The notes beneath the pieces are model-generated. The model was given only the letters and a program-made list of their open reading frames with translations, searched no databases and had not been told where the DNA came from. Of a DNA stretch of 64,000 nt, positions 2,909 to 25,679 are shown one piece after another. Source of the DNA: Chloranthus sessilifolius (Eukaryota > Streptophyta > Magnoliopsida > Chloranthales > Chloranthaceae); assembly GCA_021018995.1 (NCBI GenBank), contig CM037593.1, positions 8,026,088 to 8,090,087 of the forward strand. The letters are read 5' to 3'. Every line of letters starts with the position of its first letter. Within the stretch, counting starts at the first letter, position 1. A program made the translations under genes and the position numbers.

Positions 2909-3170
2909 CATAGCGACAAATTTCGCTGAAATTCGGCGAAATTTTGCGAAATAGGGGTCAAACGAAATTTCGGGAAAATTTTGGTTTTCAGTATTTTCGG
3001 TATTTTTCGATAAATTTTGGTAAATTTTTTTAAAATTTTTAAAAATATTAAATACATATTTTTAATCCCTGAAACTTTCCCAAATTTTTTTCAAAAAGTA
3101 TCGAAATTAATCCGAAATGTACCGAAAGGACCCCCCACAGAAAAATTCCCGAAAACGAAATTTGTCACTG
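2909..3170. mobile_element. hAT-type MITE, CATAGTGACAAATTTCG family
   Basis: A perfect 8-bp duplication TGTATGAC flanks the element (2901-2908 and 3171-3178). The left end is CATAGCGACAAATTTCG and the right end reads inward as CAGTGACAAATTTCG. The A at position 2 and G at position 5 of the terminus fit hAT ends. Length 262 bp, no reading frame of note. Confidence 0.85.
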
Positions 3171-3237
3171 TGTATGACTTATCTAAAGCTGTGTCCAACA
3201 TAGCAACTTTTTGATGCCCACAAACTCTTCCTAATTT

Positions 3238-4074: not shown

Positions 4075-5961
4075 TTTCCACCATTAAAACTGTTGATTGC
4101 TTTGAATAAGACAATGGAGATCACTCTTCATCCCAATCGTCCACACAATAGATCTTGGGATCATGCATCACCACCTATCAAACGATCTGGTATTGATTCC
4201 ACATGACATACTGTTATGACCCGGATTTTTTTAAAACACCCAATTCTTGTGGCCTTAGATGAGGTGGGTCACCAAAAAGAATGTGCAAGCTCCATACCCT
4301 ATCACAACCCAACCCATCTATTTTGAATTGGAGTCCAAATAGGACTCGTGCTACTAATAACCGCTACTAATAACCAGTCAGCATGCCCTTTCGGGCCTCA
4401 CCTAATTGTCTCAAACCAGATCTCTCTCTTTAGCAAGTAGCAGAGTCCCCTTAGACTCTTCTTTTCTCATCGCTTGATTTGCCCACCTTAACTTTGACAG
4501 CCCACAATTTGTGCAAGTTTCCTCTTTCGCACCATCTACACTCCTTGCAACATTAGTGTGCTCCCATATCACTTGCCAATTTGACTAAAAGAAGATATAG
4601 TAGGTGGCCCATAAAAGAAACCAGCCAGAGAGACCAAACTTTAATTTAATTAGTCTCTAATAAAATAAGGACTCTTGCGTTCTTAGTAGAAGCCTTGCCC
4701 AATTGGGCTCCTTCCTCAATTCCGCCTATTTACCCACAATAGCAAGTGAGGACTCTTACCTATTTAATGGTAAGACTTGCCCTTCTTGCCTCTGTTTCTG
4801 TAATGACCCAGAATTTTTTACTTTCTTTTATTAGTATTAAATGGTATTTTGTACCTTGCATGGTGTTAGTGCTCCACACCGGAACCTATCCTAGTTGAGA
4901 AAATACACATTTTGAATTTTCAAAAGATTTTATATTTAAAATTATCTTTATTTAACACAAGTTGAAAGGCTTTGGTTATAGACAAGAGGTTTAAGGATCA
5001 AACCTTTCTATGTGAGTTTTAAACTTTAAAGTAAAAGCCTATACACCCTTATCAAAGCCCGCGATTGGTTGATGTTATCTCAATTGATGTTTGAAGCATA
5101 GTTCAAGTGAAAAAGATCCCTATCAGGTGAGTGTCAAGCCTTTTGATTAGCCGCATTTATGAATTCTCAAAGTCTGGCTTTGCCACCTCTACTGCTACTA
5201 CGATCAATTTCGAGCCTGAGAAAAGCACTTTTTTTTATACGTTATTTGAAGTTGGAAGATTTCAGTAGTTATCTTATGATATTTTATTTTAAACTTTAAA
5301 ATAAAAGTCTATACACCCTCATTTGGTGCGACCATATAGAACCGAATTAATCCTCATATATTATAAATAAGAAAGTTACGGAGAACCCTAAATCACTATT
5401 ATAAGAATTCTTCTTAAAAACTCACCCTAGCGATCACTCTATCTTCTTCTCTGGTTATCCTTTTCTAAAAACACCCAAATATCTTTTAAATCTCTTATGT
5501 GTTCTTCCACAAAGAACACCGTGGTATTTTTCTGCCTTCAAATCGTCGTGGAAGAAGGCGGCGTAATCGTGGACAGACCATCGTGTGGACGCCGATCTAT
5601 ATCGCCGTAATCGTCGTCGATCTATCGATCACGCATCAAGAGGTGGGTACCCATCCATCCATCTGGTCCTTCTCAGATCCCGTCACGTAGGATACGATTC
5701 GATCGCATATCGACAGACCATAAAAAGAACCATAAATTATTTTCTTATCATTTTGCCTTAGGGTTAAATAAATGGCTAGATCTTATTCTAGTTTAATTTT
5801 GATTATATTACTTATTTATTTATTTATAAAACCGTACTTGTTTAGAAAATCAATTGATCGATAGCGATTAATTATAAGTCCGTTCAGTATAAATCAGTCG
5901 TAATTGATTTGTTTGATATTTTTTTTCTACACTTTTAGTGTTGTTTTCTTTTTACCCTTAT

Positions 5962-6098
5962 TATTTTAATATGAGGTAAATGATAATCCCAATAATATTA
6001 GCGTATAGCCACTCGGTCGGTTCACTCGTTTCATTAATATTAGTGTATAGCCGCTCGGTCGGTTCGCTCATTTCATTAATGATATTATACGCAGAATC

Positions 6099-6173
<75 letters not shown>

Positions 6174-6345
6174 CTGCAGCTTCATCAGATTTTATAAGAC
6201 GTTTATTTTTTTTAATGCACCTCTGCTACTTTAGGTGGAGGTAGGTTATTTGCATCTCTTATTCTTTAGATTTACCTATTTGTATATTATAGTATATATA
6301 ATAAAATATTATATATAAATATTATATATATATATATATCCCTGC
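5962..6345. repeat. TA microsatellites inside the LTR
   Basis: A TA run covers about 6114-6168, and shorter TA-rich runs follow to about 6340. Just upstream are two imperfect copies of tagccrctcggtcggttc about 50 bp apart. The open frames that translate as alternating Ile-Tyr here are artefacts of the TA run. Confidence 0.9.
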
Positions 6346-6825
6346 TACTTTGGATTTAAGATAATAATAATATAATATTTTATGTAAAATAGAGATTGCT
6401 CAAATAGTAACTTTTAGATGGGATCATAAAATGTGGATTGGTTGCCTTTAAATTACTATAGAAATCTTTACCTTTCCTTTCAACCATTATAATATTATAT
6501 CTCTTACTTTATATAAATAGTATTATATTCACGATGATGTCACCCATATTATTATAAATGATAATTACCGAGAAAAACCCTTAGAGTTCTTGAGTTTCCT
6601 TTGCTCTGATCAATCTCCTCTGATACTATTTTACCTTATATGGTCAATTTTTATTTTTATTTTTATGAGTAAATATTTAATTAGAACTTGTAATTATAAC
6701 ATTATACTATTTTCTAAACACTTGTAACTTAAACTAGATATCTATTAAAATAGTATATAATAAAGTGTTATATAACTTATAAGTATATAATAATATATTC
6801 TTATCTAATTTTTCTACTTAAATAC

Positions 6826-8120
6826 TGTTGTGATTTTAAATGTGTTTTAAACTCGCAAGTGCACGAATCGGATTATAGTCAGTGGGTGCAGAATACGAGA
6901 TCGTTCCCACGAAGATTGGTTAGAAAATTATAAAGAGAAAATAGTAATTAATTAAAAGAACTACCACAAATTTAGCACAAGATTTAAACTAGCTTATGAA
7001 TTTTCAAAAGTGTGAAATAAATAAATAAATAATAATGTACTGAAATTTAATGCAAGATATAAAGCGATGTTTGGGATGCTAAATCCTCCCATCCATGGTC
7101 TAACATTTACCATCATAGATCTAATTGATTAGAATTCAAGAGTGCAAGACACAAGATTGTGTTCTTCCAAAATCGCAAAAGAAATCGGCAAAACATTCAC
7201 CGTAAAAGAAACTTAGTCCTAATGACAATAAATAAATGTCATAGCCGAAATGAACAAAACATTTACCGTAAAAGAAATTTAATTCAAATGACGATAAATA
7301 AATGTTACAAACCAAATAAACAAAATATTTACCATAAAAGAGGTTTCTAATGACGATGAATAAAGGCCACAAATATTAGCAATAAAGAACCCAGTATAAA
7401 TTTCAAATCACAGATCCGCGTTCATGGGAAGAGCATGACTAAATCTCATACCTTAGAAATGGTGTTCGATATTTACATAGTTTGACAAGAAAAAATAAGC
7501 GATATAATCGAAATACACCAAACATTGAATTCCAACCACAGATCTATGATAAATAAATGAAACCTAGGATGAGATTCATTAGATCCCAATCTTCAAAGAA
7601 ATTTAACCACGCATATTAGAAATGAAAGAAATGAAAGACATAATTGAAAGACAAAATGAAAATAACATTAAAATACCGTAAAAGAAGTTTTAATAATTCT
7701 AATGTAAACTTTTTTCTCTTGATGACAGAAATTAAACTAATCTAAAAACTAAACTTAAAAATTTAAAGAACAATCCTTGAAAAAGAAAAGGGAAAAGCTA
7801 AAAACTAAAAATATTAAGGAAAATAAAAAGGCTCTCCAAAGGGAGAGACCCCTAAAAACTAATTTCTAAGTTTGCTTAAATAGGTCCTCAGCTCCAAATT
7901 TGAAATTCAAATTTTAATTTTAAATTTCAAGGACCATTAACTCCTTTGCTCCAATGTTCCAACGTTTGTTGTTCTTATACTCTTTTATGCTTCCAAATGC
8001 ATCCAATGGTCAAATATTCCTGAAACAATTAGAACTTCACAAATATGTCAGAATGCCCTCATCGGATGGCTAAATGTAAGCTTAAAGGGATGAAATATGA
8101 TCATATTTTACCACTCATCA
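6826..8120 (-). repeat. LTR (downstream, 3' copy)
   Basis: It runs from TGTTGTGATTTTAAATG to TTACCACTCATCA on the plus strand. It matches 13206-16134 across most of its length. It retains about 210 bp (7887-8098) that the other copy lacks. Near 7190-7340 a short phrase containing accgtaaaagaaa recurs three times. Confidence 0.88.
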
Positions 8121-8137
8121 CACCCCCAAACCTACAC
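8121..8137 (-). promoter_or_regulatory. Polypurine tract of the LTR element
   Basis: Read on the minus strand this is GTGTAGGTTTGGGGGTG, directly before the 3' LTR. It has the composition and position of the plus-strand priming tract of Ty3/gypsy elements. Confidence 0.75.
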
Positions 8138-9874
8138 TTTACTAGTCCTCGAGCAAAGGAGAAAATAAACAAACTGAAAAATAAACTAATATCCTAATGT
8201 CACTTTCGTAGGGAGCGCGATTGCATTTAGCGTATGCAACAAGCCTTTAAACCGCTAGATGATCCCTAGTGGAGAAGTTTTGTCTCTTGAGAGTTTTCAG
8301 TGAAGCTACCCACAAACTTCAACACATTTTCAAACCATCGGCAAAATTGAGTTTTCAAAATATGATTTTCATATATTTTTAAGTTTAAAGCATAAAACCA
8401 TTAATCAATTCAACATGCGAATTCTCAATTTCAAATAGCAATGTTATACCAATCATACTTATATCCATTCAAATTAGTTTAATGCTCAAATCATTAGATA
8501 ACTCATTTATTCATGCTTAAACGTGTAGTGTGTGCATACCCAAACCAAGATTCATCCATCTCGAAACCAATCTAAACAGTAAATCATCAGATCTCATGTC
8601 TCGACTCAATCCTCACTTTAGGTATACTCTCAAAATAGAAACACACAGATGATGAGTTTATTTTCGCTCACATGTGAGAAATCAATATAAAGCAAACAAA
8701 AAGGTCTCACATGATAGAAGAAACACGATGTAATCAATGAACAAAAATAAATCTCATAAGAACAGATACTCGTATATCCTAAGCATGTCATATCGAGTGC
8801 CATAGGTATCACATATTCACTCTCCACAAGGCAGTTATCAATGTAAGATTGGATCATGAAGGTCTTTTATAGGGTTGTAATGAGGCTCAGGTAAGGATAA
8901 GAAAAAAATGGAAGTTGAGATTCAAAATTTCTGAGAAATTGAAAAATGAACTAACTTCTGATTTTTCTATTTCTTCTCTTTTTCTTTCCTTAATCTCTCG
9001 CTATTTTTCTCAATATTTTTCTATTTTCTCAACTTCCTTTTCTTTTCTCAATCTTTTTTTCTTCTTTTGAATTTTATTTTCTTGAAGCACCTCATATTTT
9101 TCATTCTTTTTTAATTTTTTTTTTTTCTGTCATATAGTCTCAGTAAACACCACAACTCGGTATCTCTCTACTTACTCTCTTTTCGTTTATTCTCATCTCT
9201 CGTTCCTAATTTCTTAGAAATAAGAAGGGTAAGGCTAAATTTTCAGAAATTGTGCAAAGGTAAAGGTTAACGTGGCTTATCAAAGAATATATAAAGGTAA
9301 ATTTTTTAATAAGCTCAAAGGGGTACTAGAATGATAAATTTATATGTGGTGGGGTATTTTAAGTACAAATGAGTCAAAGATGACCTTCAATCATGTCCTC
9401 AAACGATAGTAACCTTGCCTATTTGTCTTGAGTAAACATACGGTACGTTCTAACACAATGATATGAATTTAATGTCATGCAAAGTCACAAGTTAAAACAA
9501 AATGTATGAGATTATATAAAAATAATTCGTATTCAAAGATAACTCCGAGTTTATATAAACTCTCATCAAGGACGAGAAATTAGCTCTAAAGCTCATTGGG
9601 TTTAGTCTCCACTAAGAATCAAGGATTAAAATTTTAAAATAGTCCCTCGATTTCTAGATCTTAAGCATGGTGCACATGCACAAAAGTGTCTAGGCATGAA
9701 TTTCAGAGTCATTCTCAAATTATCACCTTAAATTTCATCATCCTAGATACAAGTAATCAAAATATGACATCGATATTTTCAAAATTAAATTCACATGCAT
9801 CATTAACTAAAGTTTGAAAACTATCGCAAAATAACATGTGTGATAGCTCCAAAAATTTTTTATTTTTTATTTTT

Positions 9875-9924
<50 letters not shown>

Positions 9925-10326
9925 TTTTATTCTAAGGGTATCAAACTAATAGTATCACAAGAACTACACTCCCAAACCAGAATTGAACAATGTCCTCATT
10001 GTTGACAATAAACAAAATATTAGAGTAAGGTGAGAGAATATACTTGGAGTAATGATTTGATAGCATACGAAAAGGAGAGAGATAGGAAAATCTCCCCCAA
10101 ACCTGCATAAAATTATACCAAGCTATCCAAGCATCCTCACCACACAAAAAAAAAATGTCAACAATATAGAGGAAATTATCAAAATTAGCAAAATGCTACT
10201 CGGATAATACTATCAACACCATAATCAACCATAAAAAAAAAGTGTATCTAAGCATTTTATTTATTTTTATTTATTTTTACTTTTTTTTTTTTTTTTTTAA
10301 ATTTTATTTTGAAAAGAAAATTGAAA
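8138..10326. other. LTR-element interior without coding evidence
   Basis: This part of the interior is AT-rich, with T-rich tracts at 8940-9130 and an AT run at 9881-9918. The short frames in it match no family I recognise. Confidence 0.5.
9881..9918. repeat. AT microsatellite
   Basis: Uninterrupted AT dinucleotides inside the LTR-element interior. Confidence 0.95.
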
Positions 10327-11414
10327 TTAATCTACAAGGTGTAAACACAATCCGAGTCCACCAGGATCCCAAATCTTCATGAAAAATTTTCTGAGAATGA
10401 TCAGTGACTTATTTAATAGTCTCTGCATTTCTCTGATCAAGGACTTGGTTACACCCCCATGATGTGCCCAAGTTCCACCACTACGGCCCATCTCTACCCT
10501 ACAAATCTCTACCCTGTACTTGACATTCCCAAAATTGTACTCTAAATTCAAGCCCATTAATCGTTTGTCGGTATTTTGTTGATTATCTATGTATTCAATG
10601 AATGGGCAACAGATTTGAAATTCCTTTTTTTCTCCCAAACCGAATTTACACTCGTCGGAAAGAGTTATGTCTCCCTTATCAGGTGTTGTAAGGGTGCTAT
10701 TTTTTTCCTCTCTCGTCTCAATTTGATTCTCAATTCCCCTCGATATAAGTATCGTTTCATTTCATTTCCTCTTCTCCATGCACTCGCACTACCTCAACGC
10801 TCACTGTGTCACTCTTAAGAGTAGTGACCAATAGGTCCTGCTCATAATTCTGAACGAAATCAGAGGGGTCCTCTTGAAGATGTTCTTCATTTCGATCAGT
10901 ATCAATAAGGGACTCCTCTATTTCATCTTCAATTTGCAACTGCTTGGCCACCTCACTAAGTTGAAATTATAACCTAGAAATTCTTTGAGTTGTGGTGCGC
11001 ACAAAACTTTGTAAATATTCAAAGAAGTAAGAAAAAATTTGGGTTGATTCATATGATTCTGTGTCTTGAAAGTATTGAGTTTGCTGTGAAAATTCATAAG
11101 GAAAGTTGTTCGGGTAAGAACTTCGATCATAGTTAGGCATCACATCACACATTGGAGATTGATTAAACGCCCACATGTCATTGGGTTGACTCTACAGTCA
11201 CTTTGATCAGAGTAAGGCATCGTATCACACATTAGATGTTGATTAGACCCCCACATGTTATTGGATTGACTCTGTCAGTCATGGGTGTTCCAAACAGGAT
11301 TGGGGAGGACTTGTTCAGGGTAAAAATTTGGTTGTTCAAGGGACACATAGGTGTAATGTGCATCGGGCTTCCATAAAGAGTACATGATTCTAGATTGAAT
11401 CCATGCATTAACAT
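10327..11414 (-). pseudogene. Possible gag remnant of the LTR element
   Basis: Three short minus-strand frames in succession (11414-11232, 11176-10967, 10951-10757) and a fourth at 10638-10327 could be pieces of one broken protein. Reading downstream they give FVRTTTQRISRL, then AKQLQIEDEIEESLIDTDR, an acidic stretch. Plant Ty3/gypsy gag proteins often carry a glutamine-rich linker and a short coiled segment at this place, but no zinc knuckle (CCHC) was seen. A direct repeat of about 75 bp (near 11121-11190 and 11201-11272) duplicates part of it. Gag origin is an inference from position and composition. Confidence 0.35.
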
Positions 11415-11449
11415 GATCTTACCGATAACACAATTTCTTTTTTCTTTAT

Positions 11450-13080
11450 TTTTTTATTTTTTTATTTTTTTTTAGTTTATTTTTTATTATTTTTCAAATT
11501 TGAATTTCAATTTTTTCAAATTTTTTTTTCAAATTTCTATATATATATTTTTTTTTTAAAATTTTTTTTTTAATTAAAAATTCAAATTCAAATTTAAAAT
11601 TTAAAATTTAAATTTTAAATTCAAATTTCAAATTTCAACTTCAAATTCAAAATTTAAATTCAAATTCAAATTCAAATTCAAATTCAAATTTAAAATTCAA
11701 GTTTCAAAATCTAAAAGAAAACCTATAAATCCTCCAAATCCTAACAAAAATCCTACAAAAGAAAAGAAGTGAAAGAAATAAAATCCTACCAATCCTATAA
11801 CTCCTAAAAGGCAATAACTAAAGATCCTAAAAATAAAATCTTAAAGATCCTAAATTATTCTTAAAATCCTAAAAGATCTTAAAAATACTAAAAATAATAA
11901 AAGATTCTATAAAAGAAAAGAAAGGTAGAAAAGAAAATCCTATAAATCCTACAGAAAAAGGAAAGAAAATAAAATCCTACTAATTCAAAACTAAAATCAA
12001 AATTTAAATTTCAAAATTCAAATTCAAATTATAAATTCAAAGTTGAAATTTAAAATCAAAATTCAAATTCAAATTCAAATTTAAAATTCAAGTTTCAAAA
12101 TCTAAAAGAAAATCTATAAATCCTCCAAATCCTAACAAAAATCTTACAAAAGAAAAGAAATGAAAGAAATAAAATCCTACCAATCCTATAACTCCTAAAA
12201 GGCAATAACTAAAGATCCTAAAAATAAAATCTTAAAGATCCTAAACTATTCTAAAAATCCTAAAAGATCTTACAAATCCTAAAAATAGTAAAAGATTCCA
12301 TAAAAGAAAAGAAAGGTAGAAAAGAAAATCCTACAAATCCTACAGAAGAAGGAAAGAAAATAAAATCCTACTAATTCAAAACCAAAATCAAAATTTAAAT
12401 TTTAAATTTTAAAATTTAAATTTAAATTTCAAAATTGAAATTCAAATTTTAAATTTCAAAATTTTAAATTTTAAAATTCAATATTCAACATTCAAAATTT
12501 TGAATTCAAATTTCAAAAATCTAAAAAAAAAAAAAAATTCCTACAAATCTAAAAAAAAAAATCCTACAAGATTTTTTTTTTTTTTTAAATTAATCCCTTT
12601 TTTTTTTTTTTTCAAAACTTAAATTCAAATTTTCAAAATTCAAAACCAAATTTTAAATTCAAAATTCCAATTCAAAATTTAAATTCAAATTCAAATTCAA
12701 AGTTTGAAATTCAAAATCAAAATCTAAATTCAAATTCTAAAAAGGCAATAAACTAAAAAGGAACCTACAAATCCTATAAATCCTAAAAGGTAATAAACTA
12801 AAGATCCTAAAAAAAAATCATAAAGATCCTAAACTAGAAGCCTTAAAAATTCTACCAATCCTAAAAAAAAATCCTACAAATCCAAAATTTCAAAATTTCC
12901 AAACAATCCAAAATTTCAAATTTCAAAATTCAAAATTTTAAATTTTAAATTTCAAATTTCAAATTCATATTCAAATTTCAAATTCGAATTCAAATTTAAA
13001 TTTAAATTCAAATTCAAAATTTAAATTCAAAATTCAAAATTTAAAATTTAAAATTTTATTATTTATTATTTATTATTATT
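11450..13080. repeat. Low-complexity AAATTCAAATTT region with a 391-bp tandem duplication
   Basis: Most of this region is built from short words such as aaattcaaattc and aaatcctac, with almost no G. A unit of 391 bp occurs twice in tandem: gtttcaaaatctaaaag begins at 11701 and again at 12092, and ctaattcaaaac at 11980 and 12371. Copies differ by scattered substitutions. A third, poorer relative lies near 12740-12900. It has no coding potential. Confidence 0.88.
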
Positions 13081-13186
13081 ATTTTATTTTTTTTTAACTA
13101 GTGGAAATATTGATTTAAATCTAAAGAAATTTCTAAAATTAACTATCTATTTCTTAAAAATTTCAGATTTTCTAAATCCAATCCCC

Positions 13187-13199
13187 GGTAACTGCGCCA
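13187..13199 (-). promoter_or_regulatory. Primer-binding site (tRNA-Asp type)
   Basis: Read on the minus strand just after the 5' LTR the sequence is TGGCGCAGTTACC, close to the TGGCGCCGTTGCC complement of the tRNA-Asp 3' end used by many plant Ty3/gypsy elements. The two differences suggest age. Confidence 0.75.
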
Positions 13200-13609
13200 A
13201 AAACTTGTTGTAATTTTAGATGTGTTTTAAACTCGCAAGTACACGAATCGGATTATAGTCAGTGGGTGCAGAGTATGAGATCATTCCCACGAAGATTGGT
13301 TAGAAAATTATAAAGAGAAAATAGTAATTAATTAAAAGAAGGGTTTTTTACAAATACCCCCCTGAGTTCTGTTGATATTACAAATAACCACCCCCCCCCC
13401 CCCCCAATTATAGCTATTTGCTTAAAACCCCCTAAGTTAGCATTTTGGTGTTTATAAAGCACCCTCTTTAACGGATGCTACTTTAAATGGTTAACCAGTC
13501 GTTAAAGAATAGCCTAAATATCATATTTATCCTTTTTAAAATTAAATTACTAAATTGCCACCCTCTACACGTAGTAAAAGTAATTTTAAATCCACCCCTT
13601 CACTTACAA

Positions 13610-14240
13610 AAAAGAATAGTTTTAAATCCACCCACCAAATATTTGAGTTCACCCACACTGAAAAACATTGACTGCATCGAATCGAACGATAGAGATCGTT
13701 TATCGTCCCAACCTTTCACACGATGGATCTTGAGATCATAGTGGCACCATTAGACGGTTGACTGCATTGAATCGGACGATGGAGATCATTTATCGTCCCA
13801 ACCTTTCACACGATGTATCTTGAGATCATGGTGGCACCATCAACAGTTGACTGCATTGAATTGGACGATGGAGGTCGTTTATCGTCCCAACCATTCACAC
13901 GATGGATCTTCAGATCATGATGGCACCATCAGGCGGTTGATTGCATTGAATAGAACAATGGAGATTGTTTATCATCCCAACCTTTCACACGATGGATCTT
14001 GAGATCATGGTGGCACCATCAGATGGTTGATTTTTTATTTCATGTGGTACACACCCAAAAAAATGACCTTAAAATTAATTTTAACCGTATACGTGATGTT
14101 AAGGTCACTTTTCTAAGATGTGTGCCACGAAATAAAACACTGCTCGTCTAATGGTATGCCTAAACGATCTCCATTGTCTTATTCAATGCAATCAATGCGT
14201 TTTAGCGTGGGTGAACTCAAAGATTCGGTGGATGGAAGCA
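13610..14240. mobile_element. FB-A foldback MITE with a four-fold expanded left arm
   Basis: The ends ttaaatccacccaccaaat and, at the right, gattcggtggatgg mark an FB-A element. The left arm unit of 89-90 bp is present four times in tandem; the units begin with ttga at 13668, 13758, 13847 and 13937, and the next phase point is 14027. The right arm is single. Open frames across this array simply translate the repeat. Confidence 0.75.
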
Positions 14241-14477
14241 TACGCGGTTAGGCAATCCAATTCCTAAAAATGGGTCTTGAATCATATAGGAAATTGGAGG
14301 GACGAGTATTTTGAGTGGAACACGTAAATTAAAGGTTTTCTTTTCAAGAATAATTGCATCGTTTGCCACAAATCCTCCATTGGTTGAGTATTCGTCCAAA
14401 CGCTGGCATGCTTTAATGGGAGAATCACCCATCTGATGAGTCTTTAAACTGATGGGTGAACGAAGGGCCTTTTAGAA

Positions 14478-14869
14478 GAGTACCTTTAAATCCACCCACT
14501 GAATCTTTAAGTTCACCCATGCTGAAACACGTTGATTGAATTGAATCAAATGATGGAGATCATTTATCCTCCCAATCTTTCACATGATGGATCTTGAGAT
14601 CATGATCGTACCATAAGACGGTCAGTGTTTTATTTCACGTGGCACACATCTCAGAAAAGTGACCTTAACATCACGCGCGTGCTAGTCACTTTTAGGGGTG
14701 TGTACCACATGAAATAAAAAGTCGACCGTCTAATGGTACACCCATTATCTAAAGATCGATCTCATGAAAGATTGGGATGATAAAAAATCTCCATCGTTTG
14801 ATTCAATGCAGTCGATGTGTTTCAGCGTGGGTGTACTCAAAGATTTTGTGGGTGGATTTAAAGATACTC
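14478..14869. mobile_element. Complete FB-A foldback MITE with 9-bp duplication
   Basis: The ends are GAGTACCTTTAAATCC and, read inward from the right, GAGTATCTTTAAATCC. The flank CTTTTAGAA is perfect at 14469-14477 and 14870-14878. The two arms are inverted copies over almost the whole 392 bp. A 9-bp duplication points to mobilisation by a Mutator-type transposase. This is the best copy for defining the family. Confidence 0.88.
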
Positions 14870-16139
14870 CTTTTAGAATAGTGGTAAATTATAATGGCAT
14901 GACTTGTAAATAAAGGTGAATGAAGGGCCTTTTAGAATGGTGATAAACTTTAATTGGATGACTTGCAAATATAGATGAATGAAGGGCCTTTTAGAATGGT
15001 GGTATTTTTAAATTATTGGTTTCATTAAGGGAAAAATAGGCTTTCCGTCCATAAACTCACGGCTAGTTAACGGCAGGGGGTTACATGAAACATAAACACA
15101 AAAGTAGGGGCTGCAGAATAAATACCCATAACTCAGGGGGTTTCTTATAATATTAGCATAACACGGGGGGGTATATTCAAAAAACCCTTAAAAGAACTAC
15201 CACATATTTAGCACAAGATTTAAACTAGCTTACGAATTTTCAAGAATGTGAAATAAATAAATAAATAATAATGTACTGAAATTTAATGCAAGATATAAAG
15301 CGAGATTTGGGATGCTAAATCCTCCCATCCATAGTCTAACATTTACCATCATAGATCTAACTGATTGGAATTCAAGAGATGCAAGACACAAGATTGTGTT
15401 CTTCCAAAACTGCAAAAGAAATTGGCAAAATATTCATCGTAAAAGAAACTTAGTTCTAATGACGATAAATAGATGTCATAGCCGAAAATGAACAAAATAT
15501 TTACCGTAAAAGAAATTTAATTCTAATAACGATAAATGAATGTTACAAACCAAATAAATAAAACATTTACCGTAAAAGAGGTTTCTAATGACGATGAATA
15601 AAGGCCACAAATATTAGCAATAAAGAACTCAGTGTAAATTTCAAATCACTGATCCGCGTTCATGAGAAGAGCATGACTAAATCCCATACCTTAGAAATGA
15701 TGTTCGGTATTTACATAGATCGGCAAGAACAAATAAGTGATAGAATCGAAATACACCAAACATTGAATTCCAACTACAGATCTATGATAAATAAATGAAA
15801 TCTAGGATGATATTCATTAGATCTCAATCCTTAAAGAAATTTAGCCACACATACTAGAAATGAAAAAAATGAAAGACATAATTGAAAGATAAAATGAAAA
15901 TAACATTAAAATACCGTAAAAGAAGCTTTAACAATTCCAATATAAACTTTTCTCTCTTGATGGCAGAAATTAAACTAATATAAAAACTAAACCTAGAAAT
16001 GAACAATTCTTGGAAAAGAAAAGGGAAAAGCTAAAAACTAAAAATGCTAAGAAAATTAAAAAGGCTCTCCAAAGGGAGAGACCCCTAAAAACTAATTTCT
16101 AAGTTTGCTTATGATAATATTTCACCACTCATCAAGTAC

Positions 16140-18371
16140 CTACCTTATTTTAACAATAAAAATTACCTTACAAGACACATGCAAGGTATCATTTCATGTT
16201 TCAAATTTATACCGACTCAGACCCATCTGATGTTGGACCCACCCATCTGATTTCATTTCATAGGATGACATTAGAATAATTAAAGTATCTGTTATATTAT
16301 ATTATAATATATTTAAAAAGAAAGTAGTTTTAGGTGGTAATATAAAAATTAATAAATATTATATACTTATACTTTATTATTATTTTATTCTCATATAAAA
16401 TAAAGATACTTGGTTACTACCTTATCTTAATATTATAAAATTATCTTATAAGGTATATGAGTAGTAGTATTTCCTGTCAGAGCCCAATTAGCTTCCTTTT
16501 TATCGATAGATTGACCTATTAAAAAAATTGATCAATCGATCATGAGCCAAACGGCAGCTTACACCTTATTAAATTCGATCTATCGATTTTCGTCCGAACA
16601 TACGACCTGATTCACACTAAAATCTCACCATTGTACGACCAAAATCTTAGTGCACATTAATCACTTGCACTTTTCGTTCGATGGTCGTGATGCACTTAAC
16701 TTCTAAAATAATAATATTTAATTTAAATATTTTATAATAATAAATAATAATATATTTAAATATCACTTTTATCACTTCAATGAGATCTCTTCAATAATAC
16801 GAAATGCTAGAAATTTGATACCTCGTAAAAATCGAACTCTGACCTTCAAGTTATCGAAAACACATAATTACTCCCCTACTCTATAATTATTGGTGTGTTA
16901 TACAAATAAATATATGTATAAATATAACAATAATCTAAATAAAAATCTTTTTGTGCATGTGATGATTTTGTATCTCTACTTTGATCATGATATGAGTTAA
17001 GGTCATGTTAGGTCAGATGATGCGAGAGTGTATGAGATTATGCCTATGCTTGGGCGTGATAATTCACTGAGATAATATCGAAGCGGAGAATGCATTGTAT
17101 TCACATGCCTTATAACTCATGGTGGTATGAGACATTATAACGAGTAGGGTGAGTGCGAATTCAGTGTAGCCTCGTATACAGTAGCATAAACGGTAACCAT
17201 ATCACTCCGAGTTCTAATATGATAGGATAAGATATGAATCGGTAGGCTAGGATATGAGTCAGTATGATATGATATGAGTCAGTATGATAAGATATATTAC
17301 GATAATAAGACACCGCTGTATAGGCTAACAAAAGATTAACAATTTAAGTCTCTATACGTGTCGTTCCTTGCGTAGCCACCGTAAGGGCAACAACGTCTTT
17401 CAGTCAAGACGAATGTCTCTGAGAGACATTATGAGTTATGAGTCGCCGGCCGCCCCTATGACTGGATGAGGTGTATGATATGATATGACATGGAGGGCAT
17501 TATGATATAATGGTATGATAATATGGTTACCCTCACATAGTAGCTCGAGCAGCAACTCTGCCACAGGTCGTTTAAGATTTTATGAGTATGTTAGTTACGC
17601 TCATGCGATGTACAAACGTATGTGCGAGAATGATAATAAGACATGGTATGATATGTTATGAGAGATGGTAAAGTACGTTAGGATATGAGTGTCTAGATCA
17701 TGGTCTTGTATTTATAATATGATATGAGTTTTACGATATACAAATGATTTTATCTTTTTCTTACTATCTGCTTTGAGATATTATGTTTATCACTCACAAG
17801 ATGCACCCACAATGCACCTGAGTAGAATGGGGTGAATTGGTGGCGTATCCCACTGAGTTTACGTGACTGAGTAAACTCATCCCACGACAATCTAACAGTT
17901 GCAGGTGATTACGCTAGTGGAATAGACGTCGGTCATCCAGATCCCGCTGACGTTGATTTCATTGATCCCGCGAGTATTGAGTACTAGGAGCCTTGGGAGG
18001 ATGACGGAGCTGAGTACCAGGAGGGCTACGGTGTTGATTTCGATCCGAGTGTCGGATATTGATCGTTGCAGACTTTGGTAGTAGATTGGGTCCTTATTAT
18101 TATCATTAATTTATTATTTTATTTTATCGGATTTGTCTCCGACTTTCATTATTATTTTTTAGGTGTAGTATTCAGATTCATTATTTTTATTTTAATATTT
18201 ATGACTACTTTTATTTCCACCTTTATGTGTTGGCTTTCACGGATTTCGTGGAACCAAATTTGTGTGATAACTCTGGTTAAGTGTATGTCCGCTTAGCATA
18301 TCCAGGATATGTGCGGGTCATAACTCGAAATTCTAGACCCTTGGGATGGGGTAGAATTTCGGGTAATGACA
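16140..18371. other. Right part of the second solo LTR
   Basis: This 2.2-kb stretch continues the LTR broken at 6826. It carries many copies of gatatgag near 17215-17290 and 17460-17720. The motif ttacgtgactgagtaaact lies around 17860. No gene was recognised. Confidence 0.6.
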
Positions 18372-18439
18372 GTTTCTCTCTCCCCCCTCACCGATGACCC
18401 AAATCACCAAGCCCCAATTACCTCTCTCCCAGCCACAAC

Positions 18440-18443
<4 letters not shown>

Positions 18444-18501
<58 letters not shown>
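18444..18501. repeat. AT microsatellite
   Basis: An uninterrupted AT run; a shorter one lies at 18689-18708, with CT-rich tracts between them. The plus-strand frame from 18366 with Ile-Tyr repeats is an artefact. Confidence 0.95.
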
Positions 18502-18504
<3 letters not shown>

Positions 18505-19101
18505 TGAAGAAGTCAGCAACCACAGCAGCCCCTTTTTCTCAAAACGCCTCTTCCTCTCTCTTAGTTATCTTTCCCTCTCTCTCCCCTCTAATCCAACCGT
18601 CCTTTTCACCAAGACCCAAGCAGCCAATTAATACCCTCTCTCTCTCTCTCCTTTGTTTGACTTTTTTCTCTTCTCTCTCTCTTCCTTTATATATATATAT
18701 ATATATATCCCCAGCCACTATATCCCTTCATACGTCCCAAGGAGCAAACCTCCTTCCCTAATAGCCGCTGTTAGTCCTATCAAAATATCACGTCCACCAT
18801 CTTATTCGTTGCCCTTAAATCACCCCCTCGCCTTACATTCTATCAACAATAATGTTCCATATTTTCTCTCTTTCTCTCATATTTAGCTACCAAAGAAGCC
18901 ATTAAAATTATCTCGGAAGCACCACTCTTCAGCAATTAAACTCACCAAAGCGTGCTAATCCAAACATGTGGGCAATCATCGAACGAGGTCAGAAGCTAAA
19001 GCTGGATCTGTGACTATCCAATCAATCAAAAGCTCCTATGATGTGGGTGCCCTTCTATCCATTCAAATCTACACATTTACACTTTTTTTTTATATTGTGA
19101 T

Positions 19102-21284
19102 TGTCACAATCTCAGATTTTTGAGATGAGTGCACGGCATGCATTACACATAGGTATATGTGTTTCACAAGGAGACCAAAACGAACCAAAAACACTAAGTG
19201 TGTATGTGGGAAACACACTAGTATGTCCTTAACTTATAGATATAAAAGTGAAAGAGAGAGAGAGTAACCCTTACGTAACTCTATTCTAACCTAAATAGAG
19301 AGAAGGAGAATATAGAGAGAAAGAAGAGAAGAGCCTAGTAGAGAACTAGGGTTCGTTGGGACTTATGTCGGCAAAGGAGATTAGAGGAAAAGACTGGAGG
19401 AAGAACCTTGGAGGCCTGTTAGCCTAGTAGAATTTCGAATCGTAAATCGAACTTGTGCGTGACTCATCGTCAGAGGTACGTTAAAGACATGATAGATGCC
19501 TAGGAATGTTTTAAATAGTAGGAAAAATGTTGGCTGAATATTTCTTTTTATGAGATTAAGGTTAAATGATGGGAGGAAGCATGTTCTCGATCTGATCGAG
19601 GAGCAAAATCATCGTTCCTCGCTCGAGCGGTCTAAAAGGCTCGCTCGAGCGAGGATGAACAGGAAAAAAATATAACTCTGGGATCGCTCGAGCGGTCCCC
19701 AAAACTAAAGGGAAGCTCGCTCGAGCGAGGGTCCCCAGTAATACTTCGATGGCTCGATTTAACCGCTCGAGCGATCTCGATTTAACCACTCGAGCGAGGT
19801 CTAGTGACCACTCGAGCGAGGTCAAGTGACCGCTCGAGCGAGGTCAAGTGGCCGCTCGAGCGAGGTCTGGTGACCACTCAGATCTTGGTTTTTCGAATAC
19901 AAGAAACTTGGGGGTCATACACCCCAATGATTCTAGTGATTGTTCTAAACCTATTTTTGAAATGTAGGTTTGATGCATTATAACCCTCTACGAGCAGGCG
20001 TGCCTTGAGATTCGTCGAGGTAGGGAATATTCTTGAAACATGTGCATTATCCCGTGAACTCATATGCGTAGTATAATCTATTTAAATAGTCACATATTGC
20101 ATGAATCCTCATGATAAGGGTGTGTGAGTGAGTTGCAACGTGAAAGTCTTGAGGTCCCCAGGGGACGAAAAATCATATAGTTCAAACAAAGAAGGGTGCG
20201 ACAGAAATATGGGGCATCCTGTGGATGCGATGAAAACTAACAGAAACGGAAGTAATGTGATAAGGCCTGATGTAATATAATTAGCACAATCACGGTGAAT
20301 AACTATATGTAAAGCACATTGATATTTTTATTATTTAAGGTTGATTAGAATACCCCACCGACGTGGCGGGATACCCACGACTGACTCGGCAGGATATCCG
20401 TGACCGGTACGGCTGCCAATCCGTACATTCATAGTACATCCCAGGGATGTAGATCTAAAATTAGACCCGCCACCTATGAGAAAGGGGCTTGGGCAAGATC
20501 CCTGTGGATACGTATAATAACTGTCTAGTTAGACGACGATGGTGGGTATTCCATCGGGGCTCGATGCTATATTGCTCGGGGACTACTTAAGTTAAGATTT
20601 AAGTGATTAGGCCAAATTCACAACTAAACAAATACAGAGATTTAATGAAACCATGCTAAGTAACGATCAAAATCATGAGTTTAATTCCAGTTACTCAAGT
20701 TGTTGTCCATAAGTGATTACTCAATAATTCTATGCTTGTTAAATTGCTGACATATGTGTGAAGGTCAATCTATATGTTCTTTTTGTTTCCCTACGGAGCT
20801 AGGATGTAGCTCACCCCCTTAGACTATATGTCGCAGGTCCAGGACTAGCGGCAGCAAAGACTTCTGGAGAAGCTGATCCAAGGGTTTCGGTTTTCGTGCC
20901 CACAGAAGAGTCAGAACCTCCTCCTGAGGAATTCTTCTAGGAAACCCGCTGCATACTTTGAAAGTGAGTTGAGAGTATTATGTATGGCTTGGTATATCAA
21001 GCCTCTTTATGTCGAATGTTTAAATACCGTTTCTTGACAAAACGTATAAGATGAGCTGTCATCACTAAACTTTGGGTAAGTTCTTATGCCCATGAATTGG
21101 CATGGGACAAGGACTGCCTTGTGATACGTTGATGGTTTTGAGATTTTATTTAGAGTAGCTACGCATGTCTCAATTAAAGTTTTGGATTGTATATATATCA
21201 ATGTTTTGCAAGGAACCCGGGGCACGACCTCGAAGGTCGTGTTGATGGCACGGATTTCGAGGTTCCAAAATTCGGGCTGTCACA
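19102..21284. mobile_element. Third solo LTR, with a palindrome array
   Basis: It starts TGTCACAATCTCAG and ends TTCGGGCTGTCACA. It lies inside the 4212-23952 LTR. The flanks GTGAT and GATGA do not match convincingly, so the edges rest on the TG...CA ends only. Near the right end cctcctcctgaggaattc may be part of a degenerate acidic frame of the kind seen in some gypsy LTRs, but it is broken. Confidence 0.6.
19617..19876. repeat. Array of CGCTCGAGCG palindromes
   Basis: At least nine copies of a palindrome centred on CTCGAG lie here. The last few are spaced about 22 bp apart within a unit like ccgctcgagcgaggtcaag. Earlier copies are spaced irregularly. This is the most GC-rich part of the surrounding LTR. 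Confidence 0.9.
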
Positions 21285-23952
21285 GATGAATTTAGGAAAA
21301 CTGGAATTTATTAGGTTTTGTGTGGATTCACAAAACGGTTATGGTCAAATGGTTGACCCTATGGTTGAACCCATCGGCCGAGAACTATCGTGCACTATTT
21401 CCTTTCCACTGGGCACCCAAGCGTGCCGGCAAAATAGATCTCACATCAAGAATGGGTTGTTGCCTGCTTTGTTTTGTTGGGCACTCGATTGGAGGTCATC
21501 GTTTGACCATTTCGATCTCGATGAACCGATCAGTTTCTGACCTCGGTCAAACCATGGACTCCCTATAAAATCACATGCTTTATACATCTAACGATTCACA
21601 TTGACCCACATGTCCTTATTTTTATAAATTTTAGTACCTCAAATATGTGAATATATTTTATTTATGCTTATAATGCTTTTTGTGTTTATTTATTTAAATC
21701 TGCTTATACACTGGCTAAAGGGTCTAGTATGGCCCATTAATTATAGCGGACGACAGACCTATGGGCCGAAGCCCGTAAATCGAAATAAAGATCATAGGTT
21801 TGTCTGTTGAATAGATGATCAGATTTTATTTAAATAGACACATCGTGTTCTTTGCACCACTTAAAGTCGTGCACATAATCCCCAAAATTCATGCACTCTA
21901 TGCTTGTGGCACCTTAGTCTAGGGTCTGAATTGACCTCTTTAGATCTCAGGTTTTGGGTTGAATTAGGCCAATGGTCAAAACCTACTTTTTCTATGACAC
22001 CTTATGGTTATCAAACTCGGTGTCTCATAACCGATTTATTTAAATTCTTAAAATGCACCTTAAATATTATTAAGTATGGATGGAAATTGAATCATTCGAG
22101 ACCCCTAAACATCGGAAAGGTCCATGGGCCTTGTGGGCCCGTTTAGTCTATGGACCCTTAATGGGCTCATATACCCAATATAGTCAAACGCACATTTTGT
22201 AAAATCGCGGACCCAAACCTTTTGAATAGTCTCAACTCACATTCTAAGCTTAGGACAATTATTTAGGTACATCTTCTACCCATGTTATGAAGGTGTACAT
22301 ATCCCAAAAATTGTACAATAAGGATTCGACGGTCGAAACTTATTTGAGTCATATGGGAGTCAATACTTAGCCAAATTTCACAAACGATCAGTCCGTTTTC
22401 AGTAGATCGATAAGATCTATCTGATAAGACTAGTCTAACATCACCTTATGATACACTTTCTGGTACTCACGTACTTTCATTGTAGGTCGCCTTCTTCTCT
22501 CTCTTAATGATGAGCAAGGCATCCGAATTACAAGTATTTTGGTTAGATGTTTTCTTATTATATATTTCATTTATTTAGTATGGCATTCATCAGTTAGAAG
22601 TAAGTTAGGGCATATGTATGTTAAGAAAAAAAAAAAAAGAATAAGATACGACACACGACTTTTAAGCTTTCGTCACAGTGGGATTTCTTTCACGGTCACG
22701 TGAAACTTGAAATATAGGTGTCCATGTACGGATGCAAACCCCTCTATGGTAGTATGAGATGTCACACGAAGTACATCCAGATTACTACGGAACTCGTCCC
22801 TTGAAAAGCGTGGTTTGTGAATCCTATCGCACTGTGGCCCATTCTAATTAAGTTTAAAATAAGATGGAATATGAATATGTTAAGCTACGAGATATTAAGA
22901 AAGTGGAGACTTAAGCCCACATAAATATAAAATCGGGGCGGGGACCTAAGCCCAGTACCGAATAATATTATGATATGTTAAGATACGCTGTGAAGGCCAG
23001 CTGAATATAAAATTAAGTTTCTACACGTGTCATATCTTGCGTACCACCACAAGATTCAACGTCTGCAGTCAAGACGGGTCTTAAGGACACTATGATAGCT
23101 TTGTCTCGAACTAAGGGGACATTATAGTTACTATGCGCGTAACCTCATCGGGCTGGATGGTAGTTTATGTTATGATATGGATGTTATGTGGTTATCTACA
23201 CGTGGACCTCACGTGATAGGCTCGAGCAGCGATTCTGGCATAGATCGTTTAAATAAGATAAGATACGAAGTACGTTGTGTAGGCATATAGAGTAATAATA
23301 AGACTTTCGATATGCCACGTAAGTTAACTTGACAAGACAAGTAAGAAAAATATAAGCATTAGAAGCATCATATACATTGAAACATGTTACGTTCTTTCAG
23401 CTTATTTGATATGAAAAGTTTATGAGATTTTTCTGTATATTGGTTATATGTATAATTGTAAGGGTTTCACTTTCACTCATAAGGTTGTACCCACGATCAC
23501 CTGGGTAGATTGTGGTGGATCGGTTATGCAACCCACTTAGTTTACGTGACTGAGTAAACTCATCCCACCAAAAACTAACAGTTGTAGGTGAAGATATGAA
23601 CTATACTGCCCGTTGGACTTGATGCATTGGAAGATGATACGGATTATAAGGGTGACGACTTGGATGATCAACTAAACGACGTCAGGTATATATTAATTAT
23701 TCAGAAAGATCTTCCAGTAGTTGACCGAACCTCTAGTTTTGGTCAGTTTGTTTATTGGACTCAAAATTCAATGTAAGCTTATTGAAGAAAATTTTTAATA
23801 CGAGAAGAAAGTTTGATTCACGATTTTTGGGAGCCCAATTTTATGCAAGATTCAATAAGATGTGAATGTCCGTTTATCGCCTTAACAAGCGTGCGGTGTC
23901 ATAACACGGAATTCTAGGTCCTTGTGATTGGCTAGGATTCTGGGTCGTGACA
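21285..23952. other. Right part of the outer solo LTR
   Basis: Non-coding LTR sequence that continues the element broken at 4799 and 19102. The plus-strand frame near 21187-21540 runs across the 21284 boundary and matches nothing recognised. Confidence 0.55.
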
Positions 23953-24091
23953 CATACATCCCCAAAAGTGACTACGATTATGGGTGTATCATGAGAACGG
24001 CTCTTTGGATATTTTTGGGGATGTGTTCCATGTAAAATCAATATCTTTGCGCCCCGCTACCACAAAAGATGATGGTGTCACCCATTACTAA

Positions 24092-25679
24092 CATAGTGAC
24101 AAATTTCGCCAAAATGCGGCGAAATTTCGTTAAATTTGTCGAAATGAGGGTCAAACGAAAATTTCAAAGAAATTTCGTAACTTTTCGATAATTTCATGAA
24201 TTTCGATATTTTTCGACAAATTTCAAAATTTTTGGTAAATTTCGATTTTTTATTTCAGTGTTTAATGTTTAATTTTAATTTTTTTTTTTTAATAATATGG
24301 CGAGATAATATTTGCTTTGTGCAATTGTGCTCACCAGTCAATACACAACTGGTAAGATGGTATAACCTATATTATATAGGTAGCTTCTTGTGTCAATTTA
24401 TTTGTCCCACCAATGTGGGACTAAAAACATGAATGCAGTTTGCTCAATGGGTACCGTTTACCCATCCAAAAGGTTACTTTTTCATCCCCACCTCCATAGT
24501 GATAAATTTCACCGAAATGCGGCGAAGTTTCGTGAAATTCGCCGAAATGAGGGTCAAACAAAAATTTCGAAGAAATTTCATAACTTTTCGATAATTTCGT
24601 GAATTTTCGACGAATTTCAAAATTTTCGATAAATTTTAGATTTTTTTTTTCAATGTTTAATGTTTAATGTTTAATTATTATTTTTTAATAATATGGCGAG
24701 AGAATAGTTGCTTTGTGCAATCGTGCTCACCAGTCAACACACAACTGGTAAGATGGCATAACCTATATTATATAGGTAGCTTCTCATGTCAATTTATTTG
24801 TCGCAACCCACCCAAAAGGTTACTTTTTCACCCCACTTCCATAGTAACAAATTTTGTCGTAATGCAGCGAAATTTCATGAAATTTGCCGAAATGAGGGTC
24901 AAACAAAAATTTCGAAGAAATTTCGCAACTTTTCAATAATTTAGTGAATTTTTGACAAATTTCAAATTTTAGGTAGCTTCTCGTGTCAATTTATTTGTTC
25001 CCAGCCATGTGGGACTAAAAATATGAATGCACTTTGCTCAATGGGTACCGTTTACCCACCCAAAAGGTTACGTTTTCACCCCACCTCTTCCACCTGGTAT
25101 ATATTGACTGCCTTTGAATCAGATGGTGAAGGTCATTATTCGTCCCCACCTTTTTTACACTGGATCTATAAATTGTGATCGTATCATCAGATGATCGATT
25201 TTTTATTACGCATTGCACACATCTCAAAAAGTGACACTAAAATCATGCTTGAGCGTGATGGAGGAGGTCATATGATTTTAGGGTCACTTTTTGAGATATG
25301 TACTTTGTATAATAAAAAATCGATTGTCTGATGGTACGTGCACAATCCATAGGTCCATTGTGCAAAAGATGGGGACGAAAAACGACCTCCACCATCTGAT
25401 TCAAAGGCGGTCAATGCATGCCAACTGAAGAAGGTAGGTTGAGAAAGCAGCGTGGTGAGGTGAGTATAATGGTATCCTTTGCCAATTTGTCTTTTATAGT
25501 TCTATGCCTGAGTTCAGCATCAGTGCTTGGATAAATTGCTAATTTTTTAAAAAAACATTAAATTTATTTTTTATATATTTTTAATTCCTAATTTTTTTTC
25601 AAAATATATCGAAATTAATCCCAAATGTTCCGATAGGACCCCCACCAAAGAATTACCGAAAACAAAATTTGTTACTATG
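24092..25679. mobile_element. hAT-type MITE, CATAG family, with triplicated left part
   Basis: The left end is CATAGTGACAAATTTCG and the right end is AAATTTGTTACTATG. Flanks ATTACTAA (24084-24091) and ATAAGTAA (25680-25687) match at 6 of 8. The left terminus recurs at 24495 and 24840, giving tandem units of about 403 and 345 bp plus a partial one. Each unit includes gctcaccagtcaatacac-like and aatgggtaccgtttaccca-like blocks. An FB-A element (25092-25445) sits inside. Confidence 0.7.
25092..25445. mobile_element. FB-A foldback MITE
   Basis: Left arm ttgactgcctttgaatcaga and right arm tctgattcaaaggcggtcaa are inverted copies. The arms pair through cacatctcaaaaagtgac and gtcactttttgagatatg. 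No target-site duplication was identified. Confidence 0.7.

What the first reader, a model, noticed from the sequence alone, without database searches (positions are those of the whole stretch)
4075..24070. Six-layer transposon nest ordered by target-site duplications
Read directly: FB-A MITE, broken by a solo LTR (CATAC), broken by a solo LTR (GTTTC), containing a gypsy-like element (AATAC/AGTAC), whose LTR is broken by a MULE (TTAAAAGAA), which contains an FB-A MITE (CTTTTAGAA). Four of the five insertions have clean duplications. FB-A is both the outermost and innermost family, so it may have been active over the whole period, unless the MULE carried its FB-A copy from elsewhere.
Basis: partly seen in the sequence, partly recalled or inferred. 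Interest (0 to 1): 0.75.

Follow-up and report, generated by a model that had tools for sequence, protein, structure and literature searches.

The report
Nested plant transposons, order corrected
A stack of jumping genes inserted one inside another in a large plant-like genome is real, but the innermost piece came in as a passenger inside another element and one further insertion was overlooked, so this is an ordinary nest with a corrected history.

Summary
The nest is real. Unaltered copies in the same genome (G000, 2.17 Gb) support each break: solo LTR A (4212-23952) in a truncated FB-A, solo LTR B (4799-18371) in A, retroelement C (6826-16134) in B, Mutator-like M (13341-15187) in C's right LTR. 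C's uneven duplication (AATAC/AGTAC) is AGTAC with one later change: 7 of 8 empty B sites read AGTAC.

Two corrections. First, the innermost FB-A (F, 14478-14869) is not a local insertion: 26 of 26 other M copies fetched at or beside F hold it, 25 with both junctions found. The filled junction is counted 499 + 499 times, and two narrow pattern scans found no F-less copy. F entered M before M multiplied, so FB-A being outermost and innermost says nothing about lasting activity.

D, like M, is probably among the younger insertions; which came last is not resolved. Divergence does not order A and B, nest position does. Such nests are common in plants (up to 8 layers in wheat 3B, PMC4290129).

The parts
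4075..4211 (+). Outermost element, left part: truncated FB-A MITE arm, ending in CATAC (4207-4211), the left copy of A's target duplication
   Evidence: 80-83% identity to nine FB-A copies
23953..24046 (+). Outermost FB-A, right part, starting with the second CATAC; truncated, no outer terminal repeat found
   Evidence: follows the left part with a 5-bp overlap in L052 and L054, 2 of 9 copies fetched
4212..23952 (+). LTR A with everything inside it (own sequence 4212-4798, 18377-19101, 21285-23952, about 3.98 kb): solo LTR
   Evidence: TG...CA ends, CATAC both sides; relatives without B and/or D; L038+L047 hold a relative with two LTRs and CCAAG at both outer ends
4799..18371 (+). LTR B with everything inside it (own sequence 4799-6825 and 16140-18371, about 4.26 kb): solo LTR
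   Evidence: GTTTC both sides; 3 of 3 copies fetched over their whole length are solo LTRs of 4.2-4.6 kb with duplications CTAAT, GGTAC, GTATG
6826..16134 (-). Retroelement C, two LTRs, minus strand by its primer site and purine tract, no coding domain recognised
   Evidence: LTR pieces 92.9% and 95.6% identical; target site empty in 8 of 8 B relatives
6826..8120 (-). C, left LTR, with one unoccupied TTAAAAGAA
13206..16134 (-). C, right LTR, split by M at 13341-15187
13341..15187 (.). M: Mutator-like element without long ORF, ends GGGTTTTTT.../...AAAAAACCC, 9-bp duplication TTAAAAGAA
   Evidence: 6 of 6 relatives fetched end to end have their own 9-bp duplications; 2671 first-look candidates; longest stop-to-stop frame 84 aa
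14478..14869 (.). F: FB-A-type palindromic MITE carried inside M, flanked by CTTTTAGAA; not a local insertion
   Evidence: held by 26 of 26 other M copies fetched; junction pattern 499+499
13609..14236 (.). Second FB-A-like block in M with about 90-bp tandem units; wholly or partly present in the six M copies fetched end to end
   Evidence: L062 lacks much of it
19102..21284 (+).
   Evidence: RT, RNase H, integrase zinc domain and chromodomain in a full-length relative

Best explanation
An ordinary plant-type transposon nest built by separate insertions: A entered an FB-A MITE and is now a solo LTR; B entered A and is now a solo LTR; C entered B; M entered C's right LTR, bringing F with it; and, on a side branch, D entered A and is now a solo LTR. 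Shown: sites without the insert for A, B, C, M and D, and F shared by the M copies read. Inferred: solo LTRs arose by LTR-LTR recombination; D, like M, is among the younger insertions; D's missing duplication is due to target-site loss or recombination between different D elements.
For: Flanking repeats. Sites without the insert in unaltered copies. Relatives with two LTRs: A in L038+L047 with CCAAG at both ends; B in L074, where the second LTR matches only over its first part; D in 8 pairs 9.1-9.4 kb apart, one with CTTAT at both outer ends. F in 26 of 26 M copies, 499+499 filled junctions. Empty-junction scans: 2 hits, the window's own filled site and one at C2, and 29 hits, of which 4 were read on, the C2 place among them, and all 4 hold F; the printed letters of the other 25 fit a filled junction with one change. 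Nearest-copy identity: M 97%, D 98% over 400 bases and 97% over 985, against C's LTR/LTR K2P 0.072.
Against: Only 2 of 9 FB-A copies show the A site contiguous, and the outer FB-A lacks its ends. D has no target duplication. Divergence does not order A and B: A's relatives are 81-83% identical over its first 587 bases but 91-92% over two other stretches, B's 76-86% over its first 254 bases, 88-90% over the next part and 89-93% at its centre. The 39 other D copies scored range from 93 to 97%, no younger-looking than M's. The 499 per strand may be a cap.
Confidence: 0.92

Rival explanations
1. Six independent local insertions with F the last, as first read: FB-A active from the start to the end of the nest.
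For: F has a perfect 9-bp flanking repeat.
Against: The same junctions and repeat occur in other M copies at other places, 25 of 26 with both, and about a thousand times by pattern.
Confidence: 0.01
2. Part of the nest was copied as a block by segmental duplication, so that not every layer inserted at this locus.
For: L025 shows an A-like LTR inside an FB-A on contig C1.
Against: At L025 the LTR lies about 14 bp from the window's insertion point in a diverged FB-A, so it looks like a separate insertion. The best other matches of A, B, C, M and D lie at different places; not every row was compared.
Confidence: 0.04
3. D is not a simple solo LTR insertion but an exchange product or deletion derivative.
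For: No target duplication; 8 or more target bases are missing compared with A copies without D.
Against: Its ends are those of the D family's LTR.
Confidence: 0.3

Closest known systems
Nested LTR retrotransposons of large plant genomes (wheat chromosome 3B; passages seen in PMC4290129)
   Same: Several layers ordered by insertion; the passage reports 30,199 nested insertions, up to 8 layers
   Different: Here the last layer (M) carries an older passenger (F); whether that paper treats such cases was not looked up
LARDs, non-coding LTR retroelements such as Sukkula (passages seen in PMC7215508)
   Same: A and B families: two-LTR relatives whose internal parts have no stop-to-stop frame over 103 and 52 aa
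   Different: In the two relatives read the internal part (about 2.07 kb and under 0.8 kb) is shorter than one LTR; LARD lengths were not in the passages
Ty3/gypsy chromoviruses
   Same: A full-length D relative has RT, RNase H, an integrase zinc domain and a chromodomain in that order
   Different: The window holds only the LTR
Mutator-like elements and Mutator/Foldback MITEs (listing and abstract starts only: PMC4486113, PMC3169594)
   Same: M and F have 9-bp flanking repeats; F is a long palindrome
   Different: M carries F and a second FB-A-like block

Membership tests
Solo LTR (A) | One LTR with TG...CA ends between a 5-bp duplication, and relatives with two LTRs | tested here: met
   CATAC; L038+L047: LTR, about 2.07 kb, LTR, CCAAG at both ends
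Solo LTR (B) | One LTR with TG...CA ends between a 5-bp duplication | tested here: met
   GTTTC; L057, L058, L059 likewise with own duplications
Solo LTR (B) | Relatives with two LTRs | tested here: inconclusive
   L074 has one LTR and the first 1.7 kb of a second after a primer-site-like stretch; the rest of the second did not match within the piece fetched
Solo LTR (D) | LTR ends as in the family, relatives with two LTRs | tested here: met
   Same ends in the six relatives read; 8 pairs 9.1-9.4 kb apart
Solo LTR (D) | 5-bp target duplication | tested here: not met
   GTGAT/GATGA in the window; of six relatives three have one (TCGAG, GATTG, CTTAT), one lies in a CA repeat, one has none, one right end is internal
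Ty3/gypsy (C) | RT before integrase, in C or a coding relative | tested here: inconclusive
   No Pfam family in the 4 ORFs tested of 8 listed; no ORF of 110 aa in a 5-kb piece of a longer relative
LTR retroelement (C) | Two LTRs, primer site and purine tract next to them, target duplication | tested here: met
   the label tRNA-Asp for the primer site is recalled
Mutator-like element (M) | 9-bp target duplications and terminal inverted repeats | tested here: met
   7 of 7 copies including the window, each at its own site
Mutator-like element (M) | MULE transposase in an autonomous partner | not tested
   No search for a partner was made
FB-A MITE (F) | Palindrome with similar arms and relatives elsewhere | tested here: met
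   Arms 84% over 170 sites; relatives in window and genome

The most novel reading that the evidence does not exclude
Taking up F (and the other FB-A-like block) is what turned M into a successful element: no F-less M was found beside about a thousand filled junctions, so the foldback cargo may have helped M to spread. A single F-bearing founder explains the same data without any benefit.
Probability: 0.06. Interest if true: 0.45.

Novelty: new member of a known kind. Interest (0 to 1): 0.2.

Why it matters
It shows that order in a nest can mislead when the innermost element travels as cargo: its flanking repeat looks like a local insertion, and only other copies of the carrier tell. It also gives a relative order for five repeat families of one genome, with a clear limit: M and D are both young and not ranked.

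Tried and rejected
Six local events with F last: rejected because F is shared by the M copies read. Segmental duplication of an FB-A/A block: considered because of L025, thought unlikely because the insertion points differ. C site in the first three B copies: failed, since B's centre is hypervariable there; solved with a query from the flank itself. Pfam on 4 of C's 8 internal ORFs: nothing. ORFs of 110 aa in a 5-kb piece of a longer C relative: none. One search seemed to show one F-less M at C2; reading on showed F there. Empty sites in related genomes could not be looked for: the tool says that G000 has no relatives here.

Rows dropped or weak: B site in L044 not readable; C8 right end internal and C9a in a CA repeat; L061 and L062 are shorter M copies, L062 compared over 1251-1266 sites; the 1074 sites of C's LTR comparison count the 9-bp M target twice and include a poorly aligned tail (the core alone gives K2P 0.073). 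In one search a Transposase_32 match (19.5 bits, cut-off 45) is below its threshold.

Full report
What was checked. For a random pair of places in this stretch the chance is 0.22% for an exact 5-mer, 2.5% with at most one mismatch and 0.015% for an exact 9-mer.

Layer by layer. (1) A in FB-A: the flanks 4075-4211 and 23953-24046 are parts of an FB-A MITE. The left flank matches 9 of 9 FB-A copies fetched; in 2 of 9 (L052, L054) the two flanks follow each other with a 5-bp overlap, as CATAC predicts; in the other 7 the short, palindromic right flank gave no clear contiguous match. (2) B in A: 6 of 7 A-family sites printed show one GTTTC, one (L044) is not readable. (3) C in B: three B copies could not show the site because B's centre is hypervariable; a query from the flank gave a closer subfamily, and 8 of 8 pieces fetched lack C; 7 of 8 read AGTAC, one (L072) TGTAT. 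AATAC in the window is thus AGTAC with one change. (4) M in C: the left LTR of the same element has one TTAAAAGAA.

What A and B are. L038 and L047 on contig C15 hold an A-type LTR of about 3.95 kb, about 2.07 kb of internal sequence beginning with a TGGTATCAGAGC primer-type site, and a second LTR, with CCAAG at both outer ends; over the part compared the LTRs are 93.6% identical at 2214 ungapped sites. The window's A without its inserts is about 3.98 kb: a solo LTR. Three B copies fetched over their whole length are solo LTRs of 4.2-4.6 kb with duplications CTAAT, GGTAC and GTATG. L074 has a B LTR, an internal part under 0.8 kb beginning with a TGGTATTAGAGC-like site, and the first 1.7 kb of a second LTR. 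The internal parts have no stop-to-stop frame over 103 aa (A) and 52 aa (B).

C. Over 1074 aligned LTR sites there are 60 transitions and 13 transversions, K2P 0.072 (9 sites counted twice). At two recalled plant rates, 1.3e-8 and 7e-9, this is 2.8 and 5.2 million years; the rate of this species is unknown. The left LTR has about 220 bp near its end that the right one lacks. Primer-site-like TGGCGCAGTTACCGGGGA and purine tract lie on the minus strand. No coding domain was found in the 4 of 8 ORFs tested.

F is cargo. M has 2671 first-look candidates; the 39 other copies scored are 95-97% identical over 14870-15187. Six were fetched end to end (two of them shortened): each has its own perfect 9-bp duplication and F with both junctions. 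Twenty more of those 39 were fetched around F: 19 of 20 have both junctions within tolerance, and the twentieth (L093) has F with an altered left edge. A query across the left junction matched 39 of 39 other scored copies, which is biased towards copies with F. The filled junction was counted 499 times on each strand with no control match; equal numbers may mean a cap. The empty junction gave 2 hits (the window's own filled site, and C2) and 29 hits; the 4 read on, C2 among them, hold F, and the letters of the other 25 are those of a filled junction with one change. These scans allow few mismatches, so old F-less copies could escape. Pairwise K2P among seven M copies is 0.044-0.077.

D was missed. 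19102-21284 lies inside A; 6 of 6 A-family sites printed lack it. The 39 other copies scored are 97-98% identical over its first 400 bases, with 8 pairs 9.1-9.4 kb apart, and 93-97% over its last 985 bases. Ends and duplications in six relatives: three clear (TCGAG, GATTG, CTTAT), one in a CA repeat, one without, one uninformative. The window's D has none, and target bases are missing beside it. A full-length relative (L088, searched in pieces) has RVT_1, RT_RNaseH, an integrase zinc domain and a chromodomain: a Ty3/gypsy chromovirus.

Order. Nest position gives FB-A before A, A before B and D, B before C, C before M. Divergence adds less than I first wrote. A's relatives are 81-83% identical over its first 587 bases but 91-92% over two other stretches; B's are 76-86%, 88-90% and 89-93% by stretch. 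So A and B are not ranked by it. M and D both have 97-98% nearest copies, closer than C's two LTRs to each other, so both are probably younger than C, M by position anyway; M against D is open.

What is known. Passages of PMC4290129 report 30,199 nested insertions in wheat 3B, up to 8 layers. Passages of PMC6911290 report non-random nesting and a weak preference for palindromes; A in an FB-A palindrome fits but is one case, and FB-A-like stretches form 15 clusters in this window, F included. Passages of PMC7215508 describe LARDs. The paper searches were made; none was for this locus or these families by name, so no claim is made that they are unpublished. The nest is a new member of a known kind, with a corrected history.

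Noticed in passing
window 5053-5282: B in the window has about 230 extra bases between 40-bp repeats; none of the other copies listed matches this part, and L057, L058, L059 and the second LTR of L074 lack it.
   Followed up: partly
L013, L020, L028, L074: Upstream of the LTR start at the 3' side of A- and B-type elements lies another purine tract followed by an LTR-like start: about 230 bp upstream in L013, L020, L028 and about 130 bp in L074.
   Followed up: no
window, 15 clusters from 2426 to 55749: FB-A-like stretches (E up to 1e-3 with F, F included) are dense in this window.
   Followed up: partly
L058 (C2:172984600-172989400): A B-type solo LTR inserted in another B-type LTR.
   Followed up: no
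window 3006-3172 and 25527-25679: Direct repeats, 75% identical, 22.5 kb apart, on both sides of the nest; an older host element is possible.
   Followed up: no
L025 (C1:29667596): An A-like LTR in another FB-A, about 14 bp from the corresponding position.
   Followed up: partly
window 7879-8120: About 220 bp near the end of C's left LTR are missing from its right LTR.
   Followed up: no
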